Assembly (NCBI GenBank): GCA_020850355.1
Contig: JADZEX010000002.1
Span: forward strand, 1 to 52,932
DNA: 52,932 bases
Origin: Fimbriimonadaceae bacterium
GTDB lineage: Bacteria; Armatimonadota; UBA10988
Reading direction: 5' to 3'
Of this stretch, positions 31,922 to 39,873 are shown in pieces. Position numbers and translations under genes: made by a program. The notes below the pieces were generated by a model. The model searched no databases, had not been told where the DNA came from, and worked only from the letters and a program-made list of their open reading frames with translations. Position 1 is the stretch's first letter, and every line of letters begins with the position of its first letter.

Positions 31922-31938
31922 AGGTGGTGGAGGCTCCC

Positions 31939-34900
31939 GTGAACGTTCCCCGCCGCCGACTGCTGCTGGGTCTGGGCTTGCTGCTGCTGCCGCTGGCGGC
32001 GGCGCCCGACTGGGACGGCCTGGTGGCGACCTGTCGCGCCGCGCTGCAGGCCGGCGACGGCCCGGCCCTGACGCAGGCTGCCGCCAAGCTGCAGGCCGCC
32101 GCCGAGGCGGCCAAGGAGCGCGGCTACCTCGGCGCCGCCTGGCTGTTCCGCGGCGAAGCCTGCTACCTGCAGGAAGACTGGGCGGGAGCCGTCACGGCCT
32201 ACACCCGGATGGGTGCGTTGTGTGAGGAACTCGGCGACCAGGACCAGCTCGGCTACGCCTGGCTCTGTGTCGGCCTGTCGCAGCGCGCCCTCGGCGAGGT
32301 CGACGCGGCGGTCGAGGCGTTCGACCGGGCGCAGGCCGCCTCGCGCACCGCCAAGAGCTGGGACCAGGCCGGCCGGGCGGCGTTCCAGGCCAGCCGCCTG
32401 CTGGCCGACCGCTACCGCCTGGCCGAAGCCCGCGACCGCGCCATCGCGGCGACGGAGCTGTTCCGGAAGGGCGACTCCCCGGACGAGCTGATCGAGACGA
32501 TCTTCCACCTCGCCAGCCTGGAAGGCGGGTTGGGCCAGACCGGCGACTGCCGCGAACGGTACGAAGAAGCCCTGCGGCTGGCGCGGCTGAGTGAGAACAA
32601 GCTGCTGATCGGCCGCGGCCTCAATCTGCTCGGCGCGCAGCTCTACAGCGACGGTGACCTGGAGCGCGCCGAAAAGCTGCTGTCCGAGGGCGTCGATCTG
32701 CTCGATCCCGACGACGCCCCACCCCTGTTCGTGGCGATCGTCGGTAACCTGGCCCAGGTGTATCAGGCGGGAGGCGCCAAGGAGGAGGCCGAGCAGCTCT
32801 TTCGCCAGGCGATCCTCTGCGCCGGCAAGTTCGACCTGCCCGACGAGCAGGCGACGCAGCAGGTGCTATTGGCGATCTGTCTCAGCGAAGGCGGTCACTA
32901 CACCGAGGCCTTGGACCTGCTTGACCAGGCCGAGGCCGTGCGTCGCCGACTGGGCGACCCGGTGGCCCTGGCGATGGTCGCGGTCAACCGCGCCAATGTG
33001 CAGTTGGACCTCGGCGACCTGCGTGGTGCGCTGGCGCTCTACCTGCAGAGCCTCGAGGTGCTCGAACCGGCCGGCCTGGCCGAGCTGACGGGCACGCTCT
33101 ACAACAACATCGGCCGCGTCTTCGACATGCAGGGCGACTCCCAGCGGGCCGTGGAGTGGTACCAGAAGGCCGGCGATGTCGCCCAGCGGGCCGGCAAGCC
33201 CAACCTGCACGCGCTGGCCCTGAACAACGCGGCGCTGAGCATCTACAACACCCTCCGCCCGGTGCTGCCGTTGGACGACGCCGACACGCCCGAGAATCGC
33301 GATCTGCGCGAGTTGCTGCAACAGGCCCACGACATGTTCAAGACCAGTGCCGAGGTCTTCGAGGGCACCGGCGACGTGCGGTACCTGGCGACGATCTACA
33401 ACAACCTGGGGCTGCTGGCGACGGAGCTGGGCCAGACCGCGGAGGGCCTGAAGCACCTGCAGCAGAGTCTGGAGCTGCACCAGCAGCAGGGCCAGCGACA
33501 GGGCATGGCGCAGTCCTACGCCAACCTCGGGTTGCTGCACCTGCGGGCGGGCCGGCCGCAGGAGGCGCTGTCCCCGCTGCGCGAGGCGATCCGCCTCTGC
33601 CAACGCCTCGGCGAGCTGGAAGCGCAGGCCGCCGCCTGGCTCAACGTGGGTGAGGCGGAGCAGGCGTTGGGGCATGTCGAGGAGTCGCTGGCGGCGTACT
33701 ACCAGAGCATCGACCTGACCGAGCAGCGCCGCGCCCGGGTCGGCGGCGACGCCGACCAGCAACGCCAGTTCCTGGCGGCCAACCTGCACCCCTACCTGAT
33801 TCTGCTGGAGGCCCTGCTGCGGGCCAGGCGCCCGGCCGAGGCCTTCGCGGTGGCCGAACGCGCCCGCGGCCGGGCGCTGCTCGACATGATCGCCGGCGGC
33901 CGCGTCGACCTGCGGCAACGGCTGCCCGCCGAGGTGGCCGCGGCGCTGCGCGAGCGCGAGGAGGCGGTGGCCACCACGAATCTCAAGCTGGCCCGCCTGG
34001 CGGCCCAGCCCGCCGCTGGCGAGGCCGCGCTGCAGGCCGCCCGGGAGGCCCTCGACAGCGCCCGGGCCGCGCTCCGCAACGAGGAAGTGCGGTTGGCCGG
34101 GATGTACCCCGACGCCGCTGCCGATGGGGTCACCGCGTCGGGCGACCTGGCCAGCACCGCCAGCCACCTGCCCGCCGATACGGCGCTCCTGCAGTACGCC
34201 GTTTCGTCCGAGCAACTGGTGCTGTTTGTCGTCACCAACCGCGCCGGGGAACCGCACCTGGAGACCTGGCCGGTGGCCACCGGCGAACCCGCCCTCGACG
34301 CGCAGGTGACCAGCTTCCGAGCCCTCTGCGCGAACCCGCGCCGGCGCTGGAAGGACGCCGCGGCGGCGCTCTACGAGCGGCTGCTGCAGCCGGCCCTAGC
34401 GGCCTTGCCGGAGACCATCACCCGGCTGGTGATCATCCCCGACGACGTGCTCTACGAGTGTCCCTTCCAGGCGCTCTACGACGCCGCCCGGCAGCAGACC
34501 GTGACCGACCGCTACGAGGTGGTCTACGCCACCAGCGCCAGCCTGCTGGCCGCCACGCTGCAACTGGGTGACCAGCGCCGGGCCGACCCGGCGCCTCGGC
34601 GGATGCTGCTGGTGGCCGATCCCGATTTTGGGGAGCGCACCCAGGACGACCGCAGCAGTGTCGCGGTGGAGTTGCTCCCGCCGGTGGTCCGCGGCGCCCG
34701 CCTGGCCGCCTTGCCGGGCACCCGTGAAGAGGCCGCCAAGATCCGCGAGGTGATGGGCCAGGCGACGCTGCTGGAGGGCAAGGAGGCCCAGGAGACGGCG
34801 GTCCGGGCGGCGATGCCGGAGTACCGCTACCTGCACTTTGCGACCCACGGTCTGCTCGACCCGGCCGAGCCGCTCTACAGCGCCATCGCGCTGGCCGAGC

Positions 34901-35289
34901 CGGCCGACCAGCGCGACGACGGCTTCATCGAGGCGCGGGAGATCACCCGGCAGACCCTGCACGCCGAACTGGTGACCCTCTCGGCCTGTCAGACCGGGCG
35001 TGGCAAGACCGAGTTCGGCGAAGGCCTGATCGGCCTGCCCTGGGCCTTCTTCGTGGCCCGCGTGCCGGCCCAGGTGGTCAGCCTGTGGAGCGTCGACGAC
35101 CAGATGACCAAGGAGCTGATGACCCGGTTCTACGAACGGCTGGCGGCCGGCCGCCCAACGGCGGCCGCACTACGTGAGGCGGCGCTGGATCTGCGTCGCA
35201 CCGGGGCCAGCCTGCCGGGAGGACGGCAGCAATCGGCGGAGCATCCTTACTTCTGGGCGCCGTTCCAGTTGATCGGCGACTGGCGCTGA
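31939..35289 (+). CDS. TPR-CHAT protein (caspase-like peptidase), with export-like N-terminus
   Basis: Protein of about 1116 residues. The GTG at 31939 follows GGTGGAGG; other in-frame GTGs at 31924/31927 would make it slightly longer. The N-terminus is NVPRRRLLLGLGLLLLPLAAAP, a Sec/Tat-like signal (RRR then hydrophobic). About 600 residues of tetratricopeptide repeats follow (for example LYNNIGRVFDMQGD, SYANLGLLHLRAGRP). The C-terminal CHAT domain has LHFATHGLLD with His970 and LSACQTGRG with Cys1017, the expected caspase-type dyad, and ends in YFWAPFQLIGDW. CHAT proteases cut protein partners in some defence and secretion-linked systems, and many TPR-CHAT proteins have no known target. No adjacent gasdermin, Cas or effector partner is seen. 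Confidence 0.88.
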   Translation: MNVPRRRLLLGLGLLLLPLAAAPDWDGLVATCRAALQAGDGPALTQAAAKLQAAAEAAKERGYLGAAWLFRGEACYLQEDWAGAVTAYTRMGALCEELGDQDQLGYAWLCVGLSQRALGEVDAAVEAFDRAQAASRTAKSWDQAGRAAFQASRLLADRYRLAEARDRAIAATELFRKGDSPDELIETIFHLASLEGGLGQTGDCRERYEEALRLARLSENKLLIGRGLNLLGAQLYSDGDLERAEKLLSEGVDLLDPDDAPPLFVAIVGNLAQVYQAGGAKEEAEQLFRQAILCAGKFDLPDEQATQQVLLAICLSEGGHYTEALDLLDQAEAVRRRLGDPVALAMVAVNRANVQLDLGDLRGALALYLQSLEVLEPAGLAELTGTLYNNIGRVFDMQGDSQRAVEWYQKAGDVAQRAGKPNLHALALNNAALSIYNTLRPVLPLDDADTPENRDLRELLQQAHDMFKTSAEVFEGTGDVRYLATIYNNLGLLATELGQTAEGLKHLQQSLELHQQQGQRQGMAQSYANLGLLHLRAGRPQEALSPLREAIRLCQRLGELEAQAAAWLNVGEAEQALGHVEESLAAYYQSIDLTEQRRARVGGDADQQRQFLAANLHPYLILLEALLRARRPAEAFAVAERARGRALLDMIAGGRVDLRQRLPAEVAAALREREEAVATTNLKLARLAAQPAAGEAALQAAREALDSARAALRNEEVRLAGMYPDAAADGVTASGDLASTASHLPADTALLQYAVSSEQLVLFVVTNRAGEPHLETWPVATGEPALDAQVTSFRALCANPRRRWKDAAAALYERLLQPALAALPETITRLVIIPDDVLYECPFQALYDAARQQTVTDRYEVVYATSASLLAATLQLGDQRRADPAPRRMLLVADPDFGERTQDDRSSVAVELLPPVVRGARLAALPGTREEAAKIREVMGQATLLEGKEAQETAVRAAMPEYRYLHFATHGLLDPAEPLYSAIALAEPADQRDDGFIEAREITRQTLHAELVTLSACQTGRGKTEFGEGLIGLPWAFFVARVPAQVVSLWSVDDQMTKELMTRFYERLAAGRPTAAALREAALDLRRTGASLPGGRQQSAEHPYFWAPFQLIGDWR

Positions 35290-35323: not shown

Positions 35324-36112
35324 ATGAAGGCAGTTGTGACCGCCGGCGGTCGCAGCACCGGGGCGTTGGCGGAGCTGACCGGCACGGCGCTGAAGTGCTG
35401 CATCGCCGTGCAGGGGCAGCGCCTGATCGACCGCGTCCTGGCGGCGTTACACGGCGCTCGGCAGGTCTCTGGCGTGACCGTCGTCGGGCCGCCCGAGCTG
35501 GCCAGCGACCTGGCCCTGGAGGCCAGCGACCAGTTCATCACCGAGGCCGACTCCGGGCCGGCCAACTTCCTGCTCGGCCTGCGCGCGGTGGCGGCCGAGC
35601 CGCGGATCGTCTTCGTGACTTCCGACCTGCCCTTCGTCACCGCGGCGGCGATCGACGACCTGATCGATCGTTGCCCCGAGGGGTATGGCATGCACTACCC
35701 GATCTGGTCACGCCAGGAGCTCCAGGCGCAGTACCCCACCGAGGAGGGCAACTACCTGCGCCTGGCCGAAGGCGAGCTGACCGGCTCGTCGGCGATGGTC
35801 TTCGAGCCGCGGCGGATTCTCGACAAGGAAGCCGAGATCACGGCGCTGTTCAACGCCCGCAAGGACTTCGGCAAGCTGTTCGGCCTGCTCGGTCCCGGCC
35901 TGGCCCTGCGCCTGGCTGTCTGGAAGCTGCTGCGGCTGCCCGTCGTCTCGGTCGAGCGGCTGGTGGCGCGCTTCCAGGCGCAGGCGGGGTTCCCCTGCCG
36001 GGTGGTCCGCGGCGCCGACCCCTGCCTCAGCTTCGACCTCGACCATGAGCGCGATTGGGCCGACGTGCAGCATCACCTGGCCTGGCTGAGCGACCGTGCT
36101 GAAGCTGGCTGA
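35324..36112 (+). CDS. MobA/GlmU-like nucleotidyltransferase
   Basis: Protein of 262 residues. The ATG at 35324 is preceded by a strong AGGAGG. The N-terminus has the NTP-transferase pattern AVVTAGGRSTG, then ALKCCIAVQGQRLIDRVLAAL (usual Lys of the G-x-x-K-xx-L motif retained), and VFVTSDLPFVT is the metal-binding Asp strand. The family transfers NMP to sugar phosphates or to molybdopterin (MobA, MocA-like). MobA would suit the molybdenum enzyme at 42.7-45.3 kb, but the C-terminal 80 residues are longer than in MobA, so specificity is open. It overlaps the nurA start by 17 bp. Confidence 0.8.
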   Translation: MKAVVTAGGRSTGALAELTGTALKCCIAVQGQRLIDRVLAALHGARQVSGVTVVGPPELASDLALEASDQFITEADSGPANFLLGLRAVAAEPRIVFVTSDLPFVTAAAIDDLIDRCPEGYGMHYPIWSRQELQAQYPTEEGNYLRLAEGELTGSSAMVFEPRRILDKEAEITALFNARKDFGKLFGLLGPGLALRLAVWKLLRLPVVSVERLVARFQAQAGFPCRVVRGADPCLSFDLDHERDWADVQHHLAWLSDRAEAG

Positions 36113-37310
36113 GCTGTACGCCCCAGTGCAGCGGCTGGCGGGCGACAGCGCCGGTCTGGCGGCCGCGCAGGCCGCCAGCGCCACGGCGACGGTCGCCGCG
36201 CTGCGCCACCACGCCGCCCAGACCGCGGCCTGGCGCGAGCGGGCCGCGGCGGCGCGGACCTCCTGGTTGGTGGCCGACTGCCTGGAGCCGCCCGACACCG
36301 CGGCGGCGCCGGGCGACCTGCCGCCGCAGTGGACCGTGCTGGCGGTCGACGGCTCGCAGATCTTTCCCGACCGGCACGGTCTGGCGCCCTGCTACGTGCT
36401 CAACTTCGGGCTGATCACGCTGCGCTACGGGGCGGCCTCCAGCGCCCTGCTGGACAGCTCGCCGGTGCTTTGTGCCGCCGAAGAGGACCTCTACCTGGGC
36501 GCTGGCGCGGCGCGCCGGGCGATTGGGCCGGAGGAGGTCTCCATCGTCCGCGCCGTGCAGGAACTGGAGCGACTCGTGGCGCTCGCCCAGGAGCAGCCGC
36601 CCGAGCCGCTGCTGGCGCTCTGTGACGGCTCGCTGATCCCCTGGAGCCTGGACCGTGCCGACGACCCCTGGCGGCAGGCGATGCTGGCCCGTTACCTCGA
36701 CGCTCTGGCAGCCTGCGAGGAGTTGCAGATTCCGCTGGTCGGCTACATCAGCCGCAGCAGGGCCAGCGATCTGGTGCATCTGGTGCGCGTCGCCGAGTGC
36801 GACCAGACGCCGGTCAACTGCGACCGCTGCCCGCATCTGGCGGCGCTGACCGGCGACCTGCCGCGCGGCCGCGTGCTGCCGCAGGCGGCCGCCGCCCAAC
36901 TGCCCTGCGGTGGCCCGGCCGGGCTCTGCGACGCCGACCTGGCACAGCGGCTGCTGCAACCCGGCCAGCGCAGCGCCCTCTTCGCCACCTGTTCGCGCGC
37001 CTGCGGCCAACGCGATGAGCTCCGGGCGCGCTTCGTCTACCTCCACACCGGCGACGAGATCGCCCGGCTGGAGTTCCTGCCCAGCCAGGCCACCCCGCCG
37101 CGCCTGGCCGCCCTCCACGCGCTGGTCTGGGACCAGCTGATCAAGGGTCAGGGCTACCCGCTGGCGCTGCGGGAGGCCCACGAACAGGCGGTCCTCCGCG
37201 CGGCCGACCGCGCGGCCTTCGACCGTCTGCTGGAACAGGCCTTGGTCTCGCGCCAGGTCATGGTACGCTGGTCTGCCAAGGGCCGCTCCAAAGAGCGGCC
37301 GGGAGTCTGA
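36096..37310 (+). CDS. nurA: NurA-domain 5'-3' nuclease
   Basis: Protein of 404 residues, starting at a GTG that lies inside the end of the nucleotidyltransferase gene (17-bp overlap). It contains the NurA core: VLAVDGSQIFPDRH with Asp85, and LALCDGSLIPWSL with Asp177. These are the two conserved D-G-S aspartates that bind the catalytic metal ion. NurA is a single- and double-strand DNA exo/endonuclease that normally works with the hexameric HerA ATPase in end resection or phage defence. No HerA gene is present in this window. The gene ends 4 bp before the fused restriction-modification gene, so a common transcript is likely. Confidence 0.85.
   Translation: MLKLAELYAPVQRLAGDSAGLAAAQAASATATVAALRHHAAQTAAWRERAAAARTSWLVADCLEPPDTAAAPGDLPPQWTVLAVDGSQIFPDRHGLAPCYVLNFGLITLRYGAASSALLDSSPVLCAAEEDLYLGAGAARRAIGPEEVSIVRAVQELERLVALAQEQPPEPLLALCDGSLIPWSLDRADDPWRQAMLARYLDALAACEELQIPLVGYISRSRASDLVHLVRVAECDQTPVNCDRCPHLAALTGDLPRGRVLPQAAAAQLPCGGPAGLCDADLAQRLLQPGQRSALFATCSRACGQRDELRARFVYLHTGDEIARLEFLPSQATPPRLAALHALVWDQLIKGQGYPLALREAHEQAVLRAADRAAFDRLLEQALVSRQVMVRWSAKGRSKERPGV
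37242..37269 (+). promoter_or_regulatory. Weak candidate promoter inside the nurA 3' end
   Basis: TTGGTC (37242-37247) and TACGCT (37264-37269) are separated by 16 bp. If used, transcription would begin just before the hairpin at 37281 and give the restriction-modification gene its own short leader. Both boxes are weak matches. Confidence 0.25.
37281..37300 (+). promoter_or_regulatory. 8-bp perfect hairpin immediately before the RM gene RBS
   Basis: GGCCGCTC (37281-37288) pairs with GAGCGGCC (37293-37300) across a CAAA loop. GGGAG, the ribosome-binding site, starts at 37301 and the GTG is at 37315. There is no T-run, so it is not a classical terminator. A translational or operator role in controlling a toxic restriction enzyme is possible. 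Confidence 0.55.
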
Positions 37311-37314
37311 CCTG

Positions 37315-39873
37315 GTGGAGCTCGTCGTGGCGCGCAGCGAACCGCCGCCGGTGCTCTCGACGCGGGTCGACGGCCTGGCAGAGGCACTGCTGTGGGACGT
37401 CGAACGACGCCGCCAGATCGCGACGGCGCGGCTGGCCGAGACGGATCGCGGTCGGCACGGCCAGTACCTGAGCCCGCCGGCGGTGGCGCAGCTCCTGGCG
37501 GGTATGGCCCCTGCCCAGGGCCAGGCGGTCCGGCTGCTGGATCCGGGCTGCGGCGTCGGCTCGCTGTTCGCGACGCTGGTCGTGCAACTTCTGCGCCGCC
37601 AGCCCGAGGTGCGCCGCATCGCCTGCTGGGCCTACGAACTCGATCCTTCCCTGGCGGCGGAGGCCGCGCAGACGCTGCGGCGGTGCGGGGAGTTGTGCGC
37701 CGAGGCGGGTGTTGCCTGGGAGGGCCGCCTGCAGGCCACCGATTACCTGCCAGCCGCCGTCGACAGCCTGGGCTGGCGGTTGCCGCTGGCGGGTGGCGAC
37801 GCCGCGCCACAGTTCGACCTGGTAATCGCCAACCCGCCGTACCGCAAGATCGAGGGGCGTTCCCCGGAACGCCTGTTGCTGCGCGAGGCGGGCTGGGAGG
37901 TCAGCAACCTGTACGCCGGCTTCCTGGGGCTGGCCGCCGAGCAGTTGGCCGCGCACGGCAGCCTGCTGGCGATCTGCCCCCGCAGTTTCTGTAACGGCAG
38001 CTACTTCCGAGCCTTCCGCAGCCGCCTGCTGCGCCTCACTGCCATCCGTGAAGTGCTGCTCCTGGCGGAGCGTGACGTGGCCTTTCGTGACGGCGGGGTG
38101 TTGCAGGAGTGCCTCCTGTTCCGCGCCGACCGCGGCGCCACGCCAGCGACGGTGATGGTGGTGGAGGCCTGCTCCAGCGAAGGAGCCACCACGGCTCGGC
38201 GGCTGCCGTACGAGCAGTTGGTCCGGCCGGCGGACCCGGACCAGGTGATCCACCTGCCGAGCAGCCCGCACGAACTCGCCGCCGATGCGTTGCTGCAGGC
38301 ACTGCCCGACCGGCTCGCGACGCTCGGGCTGGCGGTCTCCACCGGCCGCCTGGTGGAGTTTCGATCGCGCGCCGAGCTGCTGCCGCGCTGGGAGCCTGGA
38401 CAGTGGCCAGTCGTGCATCCGGCGCACCTGCGCGACGGGCGGGTCGACTGGCCGCTGCGCGATTTGAAGCGCCCCCAGGCGTTGCGCGCCACCGCCACCA
38501 CCGAGCCGCTCACGCTGCCGAACCAGTGGTACGTCCTGGTGAAGCGCTTCACGTCGAAGGAGCAGCTCCGCCGAGTCACGGCGGCGGCCCACGACCCGGC
38601 GGCGGTGCCCGCCGCCCGCGTGGTCGTCGAGAACCACCTCAACGTGATCCACGGAGTCCGCGGCGCGCTCGACCCCCAGACCGCGCAAGGTCTCTGCGCC
38701 TGGCTCAACAGCTCGGCCGTGGACGCCTGGTTTCGGCTGTTCAGCGGCTCCACGCAGGTCAACGCCAGCGATCTGCGAAGACTGCCGACGCCCACCCGCA
38801 ACGTGCTGCGCCAACTTGGCCTGGATCGGCGCTGGTGTGGCGACCAGCGGAGCGTCGACGCACTGGTCCGAGAGGTGGTCTTCGCGATGGCTGACAGCGA
38901 CCTCACGGCCACTCAACAGCGCCTGCAGGAGGCTGCGGCGGTGCTCCGCGAGCTGGGCTTCCCGCCGCGTTGCTGCAACCGCATGGCTGCGGTGACGCTG
39001 TTGGCTTACCTGGACCTCGGGCCGGCCGACGCCTGGTCCGCCGCCACCGCACCCCGGCGGGGCATCAGCCAGGTGATCGCGTTCGCCGCCGAGCAGTACC
39101 AGATCCAGTACCAGACCGGCACTCGCGAGAGTATCCGCAAGCAGGCCGTGCAGCAGTTCCTGCAGGCCGGCATTCTGGTGCCGAACCCTGACCAGCCCGA
39201 TCGGGCGGTCAACAGCCCGGCGACGGTCTACCAGCTCGAGCCGGGTGCGTTGGCGCTGTTGCGACAGACCGGCAGCCCGGCCTGGGCCGCCGCTCTGCCG
39301 GTCTACCGGGCGGCGCAAGCCACCCTCAGCAGCCGCTACGCGGCCGCGCGGGCGATGCCGACGGTGCCGGTGCGGACACCTGACGGGCAGCGCTTTGCGC
39401 TGACCGCGGGCGACCACAATGAGTTGATCCGCGAGGTCGTCGAGGAGTTCGCGAGTCGCTTCACGCCCGGCGCCGAGGTGCTCTATGTCGGCGACACCGG
39501 CAGCAAGTTCGCCTTCTTCCCAGCGGCGGCACAGGCTCGGCTGGCCGCGCTGGGCGTCGCGCTCGACCCGCATGGCCAGATGCCGGACGTGATTCTCTGG
39601 GACCCCGACCGCAACTGGTTGGTGCTGGTCGAGGCCGTCACCAGCCACGGGCCGATCGACGCGAAGCGCCGCGAGCAACTCCTGGCGCTCTTCGACGGCA
39701 CCCAGGCCGGACTGGTTTTCGTGACAGCCTTCCAGCGACGCGAACACCTGCTACAGTATCTGCGTGAGATCTCCTGGGAGACCGAGGTCTGGCTGGCCGA
39801 GGCGCCGACGCACCTGATTCACTTCGACGGCGAGCGGTTCCTGGGACCATCGCCCACCGGCGAGCCAGCCTGA
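37315..39873 (+). CDS. Single-chain adenine methyltransferase / PstI-BsuBI-type restriction endonuclease fusion
   Basis: Protein of 852 residues (GTG at 37315, alternative GTG at 37327). N-terminal gamma-type N6-adenine methyltransferase: GRHGQYLSPPAVAQLL, SAM motif LDPGCGVG (75-82), catalytic NPPY (173-176), then a target-recognition region to about 520. From about 525 the sequence reads like a whole PstI/BsuBI restriction enzyme. An N-terminal helical domain has GTRESIRKQAVQQFLQAGI and NPDQPDRAVNSPATVYQL. The nuclease domain has LYVGDTGSK (Asp727), MPDVILWD (Asp758), EAVTSHGPIDAKRREQL (Glu773, Lys784), LVFVTAF and WETEVW. In PstI and BsuBI these are two separate genes; here they are one polypeptide. 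The likely site is CTGCAG or related, by family inference. There is no separate control gene. Confidence 0.9.
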   Translation: MELVVARSEPPPVLSTRVDGLAEALLWDVERRRQIATARLAETDRGRHGQYLSPPAVAQLLAGMAPAQGQAVRLLDPGCGVGSLFATLVVQLLRRQPEVRRIACWAYELDPSLAAEAAQTLRRCGELCAEAGVAWEGRLQATDYLPAAVDSLGWRLPLAGGDAAPQFDLVIANPPYRKIEGRSPERLLLREAGWEVSNLYAGFLGLAAEQLAAHGSLLAICPRSFCNGSYFRAFRSRLLRLTAIREVLLLAERDVAFRDGGVLQECLLFRADRGATPATVMVVEACSSEGATTARRLPYEQLVRPADPDQVIHLPSSPHELAADALLQALPDRLATLGLAVSTGRLVEFRSRAELLPRWEPGQWPVVHPAHLRDGRVDWPLRDLKRPQALRATATTEPLTLPNQWYVLVKRFTSKEQLRRVTAAAHDPAAVPAARVVVENHLNVIHGVRGALDPQTAQGLCAWLNSSAVDAWFRLFSGSTQVNASDLRRLPTPTRNVLRQLGLDRRWCGDQRSVDALVREVVFAMADSDLTATQQRLQEAAAVLRELGFPPRCCNRMAAVTLLAYLDLGPADAWSAATAPRRGISQVIAFAAEQYQIQYQTGTRESIRKQAVQQFLQAGILVPNPDQPDRAVNSPATVYQLEPGALALLRQTGSPAWAAALPVYRAAQATLSSRYAAARAMPTVPVRTPDGQRFALTAGDHNELIREVVEEFASRFTPGAEVLYVGDTGSKFAFFPAAAQARLAALGVALDPHGQMPDVILWDPDRNWLVLVEAVTSHGPIDAKRREQLLALFDGTQAGLVFVTAFQRREHLLQYLREISWETEVWLAEAPTHLIHFDGERFLGPSPTGEPA

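What the first reader, a model, noticed from the sequence alone, without database searches (positions are those of the whole stretch)
37315..39873. Methyltransferase and complete PstI/BsuBI restriction enzyme fused in one polypeptide
In the known PstI and BsuBI systems the adenine methyltransferase and the nuclease are separate genes. Here an uninterrupted 852-residue frame joins LDPGCGVG and NPPY of the methyltransferase to the full nuclease signature (LYVGDTGSK, MPDVILWD, EAVTSHGPIDAKRREQL). A single-chain enzyme must either cut away from or at its own site under one recognition domain, unlike type IIG enzymes with a different nuclease fold. CTGCAG occurs inside the gene itself (37729, 38293), so if that is the site the host must be methylated. 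The specificity is family inference.
Basis: partly seen in the sequence, partly recalled or inferred. Interest (0 to 1): 0.88.

Follow-up and report, generated by a model that had tools for sequence, protein, structure and literature searches.

The report
Fused restriction-modification gene with internal start
One bacterial gene joins a DNA-protecting methylase to a complete PstI/SdaI-type DNA-cutting enzyme; such joined genes turn out to be common across bacteria, and nearly all keep a start signal at the joint that would let the cutter also be made on its own, which is the part that appears new.

Summary
One open frame (37315-39873, 852 aa) joins a gamma-class adenine methyltransferase (M) to a complete BsuBI/PstI-family nuclease (R), with no stop or frameshift. 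The claim that this is unusual is not supported. PADLOC already holds an 840-position profile covering the fusion. I found 95 distinct fused homologues in ten or more phyla, about 32 of them among 1,477 sampled genomes. Fused and split forms have interconverted at least seven times. The 'one recognition domain' premise also fails: M has its own TaqI/BseCI-like target-recognition part and R its own SdaI-like winged helix.

The new result is at the joint. The linker varies, but a start codon sits at the old R start (window ATG 38887): ATG in 85% of <60%-identical representatives versus 13% elsewhere; ATG/GTG/TTG in 96% versus 36%. Outside cyanobacteria it follows a Shine-Dalgarno at 8-12 nt, beyond synonymous-codon expectation (p 2e-6). 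Ala/Ser/Thr follows in 74% versus 27%. I infer one gene, two products: M-R fusion plus free R. No product was measured.

The site is not established: CTGCAG and CCTGCAGG are not avoided in this genome, and the recognition helix deviates from the family consensus as SdaI's does.

The parts
37315..39873 (+). fused M-R gene, 852 aa, GTG start, GGGAG 9-10 nt upstream
37411..38874 (+). M half (about residues 33-520): gamma-class N6-adenine methyltransferase with its own target-recognition part
   Evidence: Pfam Eco57I/N6_Mtase; PADLOC PDLC03227 29-525; Foldseek M.BseCI, CamA, M.TaqI
37537..37560 (+). SAM-binding motif LDPGCGVG (residues 75-82)
   Evidence: sequence; G80 invariant in 51 fused proteins
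37831..37842 (+). catalytic NPPY (residues 173-176)
   Evidence: invariant in 51 fused proteins
38873..38878 (+). Shine-Dalgarno-like AGGTGG, 8 nt before the internal ATG
   Evidence: duplex energy -8.3 kcal/mol, not beyond synonymous shuffles for this gene alone
38887..38889 (+). internal in-frame ATG (Met525, followed by Ala) at the position of the stand-alone R start
   Evidence: SdaI residue 5 aligns to residue 528
38887..39873 (+). predicted second product: free R, 328 aa (SdaI chain is 323 aa)
   Evidence: inference
38917..39327 (+). R winged-helix DNA-recognition domain (residues 535-671)
   Evidence: Pfam BsuBI_PstI_RE_N
39115..39165 (+). putative recognition helix region (residues 601-617, TGTRESIRKQAVQQFLQ), divergent from the family consensus
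39364..39834 (+). R catalytic domain (residues 684-840)
   Evidence: Pfam BsuBI_PstI_RE
39580..39654 (+). nuclease signature MPDVILWD ... EAVTSHGP (D758, E773, H778, G779 invariant)

Best explanation
The gene is a fused type II restriction-modification system of the PstI/BsuBI/SdaI family in an Armatimonadota genome. The chain is two complete enzymes end to end: an N-terminal gamma-class adenine methyltransferase with its own target-recognition part, a short linker, and an SdaI-like nuclease with its own winged-helix reader. SHOWN: the fused frame, the family of both halves, the wide occurrence of such fusions, and the conserved start codon (with Shine-Dalgarno outside cyanobacteria) at the joint across the family. 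INFERRED: the gene makes two products, the M-R chain and free R started at ATG 38887. M-R would methylate host sites as a monomer; R would dimerise through the nuclease part, as free R or as M-R, and cut unmethylated palindromic sites at the site, not at a distance. Because no free R can be translated without a transcript that also encodes M, and because cutting needs dimers, entry into a new host should favour methylation first.
For: Pfam, PADLOC and PDB matches. AlphaFold model pLDDT 88, pTM 0.76, with both halves matching solved enzymes. 95 distinct fused frames. Start codon at the joint: ATG in 39 of 46 representatives below 60% identity versus 13% of other 8-codon windows (p 5e-28), ATG/GTG/TTG in 44 of 46 versus 36%. 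When the Met is absent the column or its neighbour often holds GTG or TTG (L032, L035, L042, L054, L059, L070, L178). Outside cyanobacteria (n 56) the anti-SD duplex is -6.79 versus -4.94 for synonymous shuffles (p 2e-6) and -2.66 at other internal Mets; SD tetramers peak at spacers 8-12 nt; the next residue is A/S/T in 74% versus 27% (p 7e-18). All-fused clades keep the Met while the linker around it drifts: the proteobacterial-type clade keeps it in 10 of 10 at 38% linker identity, cyanobacteria in 19 of 21 at 53%. In-frame split relatives place stop and R start back to back (L038 TAG|ATG, L112 TAA|ATG, L109 TGA|GTG).
Against: No transcript, ribosome profile or protein was seen. For the window gene alone the SD is not stronger than synonymous shuffles (fraction 0.495), since its G-rich codons give one easily. 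Cyanobacterial members keep the ATG but show no SD. Three actinobacterial members lack a clear start at the joint. Recurrent fusion and fission could leave the start as a relic in recently fused genes, though not in the old all-fused clades. Sequences are related, so p-values are nominal. M activity, cutting and dimerisation are by homology.
Confidence: 0.68

Rival explanations
1. Only the M-R chain is made. The junction Met and its upstream purines are leftovers of the split ancestor, and the enzyme is a plain type IIC-like bifunctional polypeptide.
For: Split relatives with R starts at the same place exist throughout the tree and states changed at least seven times. An engineered M/R fusion (RM.Eco29kI) works as one chain (PMC3039593). 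Several fused genes lack the start, and cyanobacterial ones lack the SD.
Against: Retention of ATG, SD spacing and the Ala/Ser/Thr second residue in deep all-fused clades whose linkers are only 38-53% identical; enrichment beyond synonymous codons.
Confidence: 0.24
2. The fusion in this window is a sequencing or assembly artefact joining two genes.
For: The genome is a 117-contig assembly; no reads could be checked; most plasmid relatives are two genes, those inspected mostly with a 4-nt overlap.
Against: Linker length and frame match those of dozens of independently assembled fused genes, including complete genomes of Desulfonema magnum and Planktothrix rubescens.
Confidence: 0.03
3. A type IIG-like enzyme in which one recognition module steers both activities and cleavage is at a distance.
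For: Single chain with methylase and nuclease; Foldseek also ranks the type IIG BpuSI (rank 50).
Against: The nuclease keeps its own winged-helix domain and full SdaI homology; order is M then R, whereas most type IIC/IIG are R then M (PMC4081073).
Confidence: 0.05

Closest known systems
SdaI restriction endonuclease (PDB 2ixs) and the PstI/BsuBI family (Pfam PF06616 + PF17728)
   Same: R half is homologous over its whole length (528-845 to 5-320), with winged helix, PD...E signature, and a start near Met525
   Different: Known PstI/BsuBI/SdaI nucleases are stand-alone proteins; here R is joined to M. The window's recognition-helix region shares TG/RK with SdaI and departs from the family consensus at N602, R609 and H613
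PADLOC PDLC03359 (MTase_II, 840 positions)
   Same: Covers the complete fused architecture (24-845 of 852)
   Different: The window scores lower (610 bits) than other fused members (about 870 to 1319 bits): a divergent branch
Type IIC / IIG combined RM enzymes (Eco57I, BpuSI, MmeI; BtgZI)
   Same: Methyltransferase and nuclease in one chain
   Different: Those share one specificity module, mostly have R before M, and cut at a distance (PMC4081073); here there are two complete readers and M precedes R
Engineered RM.Eco29kI (PMC3039593)
   Same: Fusion of a complete type IIP nuclease and its methyltransferase that stays functional
   Different: Made in the laboratory, R before M, unrelated nuclease family
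Genes-within-genes in defence: McrB(L)/McrB(S) (PMC12707154), Cas10d/Cas11d, RpnL/RpnS (PMC10327210)
   Same: A second protein from an internal in-frame start
   Different: There the short product is regulatory or structural; here it would be the complete catalytic nuclease

Membership tests
BsuBI/PstI restriction endonuclease (PF06616/PF17728) | Match to both Pfam domains over the curated cut-off | tested here: met
   193.9 and 122.7 bits versus cut-offs of 27
BsuBI/PstI restriction endonuclease (PF06616/PF17728) | Conserved active-site signature (PD ... E ... SHGP) | tested here: met
   D758, E773, H778, G779 invariant in 51 fused proteins
BsuBI/PstI restriction endonuclease (PF06616/PF17728) | Cuts CTGCAG or CCTGCAGG | not testable with these tools
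   No avoidance of either site in 781 kb (0.84 and 0.96 of expected); recognition helix divergent
Gamma-class N6-adenine methyltransferase | Motif I before NPPY plus a C-terminal target-recognition part | tested here: met
   Sequence order; Pfam; Foldseek to M.TaqI and M.BseCI
Type IIC (combined) RM | Both activities in one protein | tested here: inconclusive
   Both domains in one frame; activity not measured, and a separate R is predicted as well
Type IIG | One specificity module for both activities, AdoMet-stimulated cutting | tested here: not met
   Two recognition parts by homology; AdoMet dependence not testable
Genes-within-genes (internal translation start) | Conserved in-frame start with initiation signals beyond coding constraint | tested here: met
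   for the family; for the window gene alone codon, spacing and Ala second residue fit but are not significant
Genes-within-genes (internal translation start) | Second protein observed | not testable with these tools
   Needs proteomics or ribosome profiling

The most novel reading that the evidence does not exclude
Fused PstI/SdaI-type M-R genes across bacteria are genes-within-genes: each makes an M-R chain and, from a conserved internal start, a free complete restriction endonuclease, which also explains why fused and split forms interconvert so easily (a stop at the joint does not remove R). In the window's divergent member the recognition site may in addition have changed from CTGCAG.
Probability: 0.65. 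Interest if true: 0.62.

Novelty: new variant of a known kind. Interest (0 to 1): 0.48.

Why it matters
Type II systems must protect host DNA before the nuclease becomes active. A fused gene ties nuclease supply to methylase supply, and a retained internal start would let the cell set the ratio of free nuclease to methylase at the level of translation. That is a control layer not described for this family in the papers I could search. It also warns that gene annotation of these loci as one protein, and REBASE-style naming as a single RM enzyme, may miss the free nuclease. The system has cultivable hosts (Myxococcus, Nostoc, Planktothrix relatives) in which it can be tested directly.

Tried and rejected
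Rarity of the fusion: rejected. A NurA-RM partnership (NurA gene ends 4 nt upstream): rejected as a conserved feature, since no NurA, CysS or nucleotidyltransferase homologue flanks any other locus held. CTGCAG or CCTGCAGG avoidance as evidence of specificity: not seen in the window genome or in G145 and G110; CTGCAG is low only in G015 (12 seen, 60 expected), where many palindromes are low. Literature search for fused PstI-type enzymes or internal starts in them found none; the library holds open-licence papers only. A search for a PvuII-type nuclease to explain missing CAGCTG gave nothing, with no positive control. Whole-frame minus-strand ORF rejected as a shadow.

Full report
CHECK. The frame 37315-39873 is open without stop and encodes 852 residues. 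Pfam, PADLOC and PDB searches place residues about 30-520 in the gamma-class N6-adenine methyltransferases and 528-845 in the BsuBI/PstI nucleases, closest solved relative SdaI at E 8e-72. The start at GTG 37315 has GGGAG upstream, and the preceding NurA-domain gene ends at 37310.

ANATOMY. An AlphaFold2 model built on 51 fused homologues is confident (pLDDT 88, pTM 0.76). Foldseek matches the M half to whole M.BseCI, CamA and M.TaqI chains and the R half to SdaI. So the chain holds two complete enzymes, each with its own DNA-recognition part. Catalytic residues NPPY and D758/E773 are invariant in the family. The premise that one recognition domain must serve both activities is therefore not needed, and cutting at the site is the simplest expectation.

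HOW COMMON. In the Armatimonadota (the phylum is inferred from two of its loci being identical to named records, L003 = L071 and L018 = L040), 4 of 291 genomes carry a near-full fusion and others carry split pairs or orphans. In cyanobacteria 13 of 292, Myxococcota 3 of 195, Chloroflexota about 11 of 350, and the phylum of the Rhizobacter locus 1 of 349 (counted as matches spanning at least about 770 of 840 profile positions, a few with a stop inside). A scan of GTDB species gave 554 relatives, and most of the 80 best were single-frame fusions, a set biased towards fusions by ranking. Plasmid relatives I opened are two genes, usually with a 4-nt overlap, and viral-contig relatives are split where both halves are present. 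On a tree of 130 systems the fused/split label changes at least 7 times on well-supported branches, 10 in all, against 35.6 when shuffled. Some fused clades are old and phylum-wide. PADLOC's profile PDLC03359 spans the fusion, so the architecture is already in a reference database, though I found no paper describing it.

THE JOINT. Aligning fused proteins showed a variable linker with one conserved residue, a Met, at the place where SdaI and the split R proteins start. It is a start-codon signal rather than a protein one by four tests. First, ATG lies in an 8-codon junction window in 85% of 46 representatives under 60% identity against 13% of comparable windows, and ATG/GTG/TTG in 96% against 36%. 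Second, when Met is missing, GTG or TTG often stands at or next to it. Third, outside cyanobacteria a Shine-Dalgarno tetramer peaks 8-12 nt upstream, stronger than synonymous-codon shuffles of the same peptides (p 2e-6), and -6.79 against -2.66 kcal/mol at other internal Mets. Fourth, the following residue is Ala/Ser/Thr in 74% against 27%, as at protein N-termini. Cyanobacterial members keep the ATG without an SD. Relatives with an in-frame stop at the joint place the R start right behind it. In the window the features are AGGTGG, 8 nt, ATG GCT; they fit, but are not significant for one gene.

MECHANISM. Shown: domain content, occurrence, conserved internal start signals. Inferred: two products, M-R and free R; M acts as a monomer and R as a dimer. 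A review of host-dependent RM notes that combined polypeptides should pass through a methylating, non-cutting monomer stage as they accumulate (PMC12707154), and that mcrB makes a second protein by internal initiation. Rpn nucleases and Cas10d/Cas11d are further precedents (PMC10327210).

SPECIFICITY. CTGCAG is 728 seen against 862 expected and CCTGCAGG 77 against 80 in 781 kb of the window's genome. The window protein departs from 19 of 153 near-invariant family columns, second most of 130. These include N602G, R609K and H613Q in the presumed recognition helix, where SdaI (site CCTGCAGG, from general knowledge) also differs and shares TG and RK. CTGCAG, CCTGCAGG or a new motif all remain open.

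CAVEATS. Genomes are largely metagenome assemblies; p-values ignore relatedness except in the thinned sets; no expression or activity was measured; the papers searched are open-licence only.

Noticed in passing
G000 sampled contigs (781 kb, includes the window; only 2 CAGCTG in the window): CAGCTG (the PvuII site) is almost absent from this genome: 15 seen against 522 expected, the strongest depletion of 46 testable palindromes; a same-family genome without this RM shows a milder depletion (34 against 99). No PvuII-family nuclease was found. The cause is unexplained; a changed specificity of the window's enzyme is one untested possibility.
   Followed up: partly
G015 sampled contigs (L278-L287): The Armatimonadota genome carrying fused homologue L003 strongly avoids many palindromes (GTGCAC 0 of 15, GGCGCC 1 of 152, CGATCG 1 of 108, TGGCCA 2 of 89), as if it carried many restriction systems.
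   Followed up: no
36096-37310: A NurA-domain nuclease gene ends 4 nt before the fused gene, likely in one operon; the pairing is not seen in other loci held.
   Followed up: yes
31924-35289: A 1121-aa TPR-CHAT protein (caspase-like CHAT domain, E 4e-70) lies upstream on the same strand.
   Followed up: no
L035, L061, L106, L191: Several fused relatives carry a single in-frame stop inside the R half with M intact, as if R alone is being lost.
   Followed up: no
L004, L020, L113, L114: Intact orphan M halves without R occur in Armatimonadota genomes and viral contigs, suggesting M is kept after loss of R.
   Followed up: no
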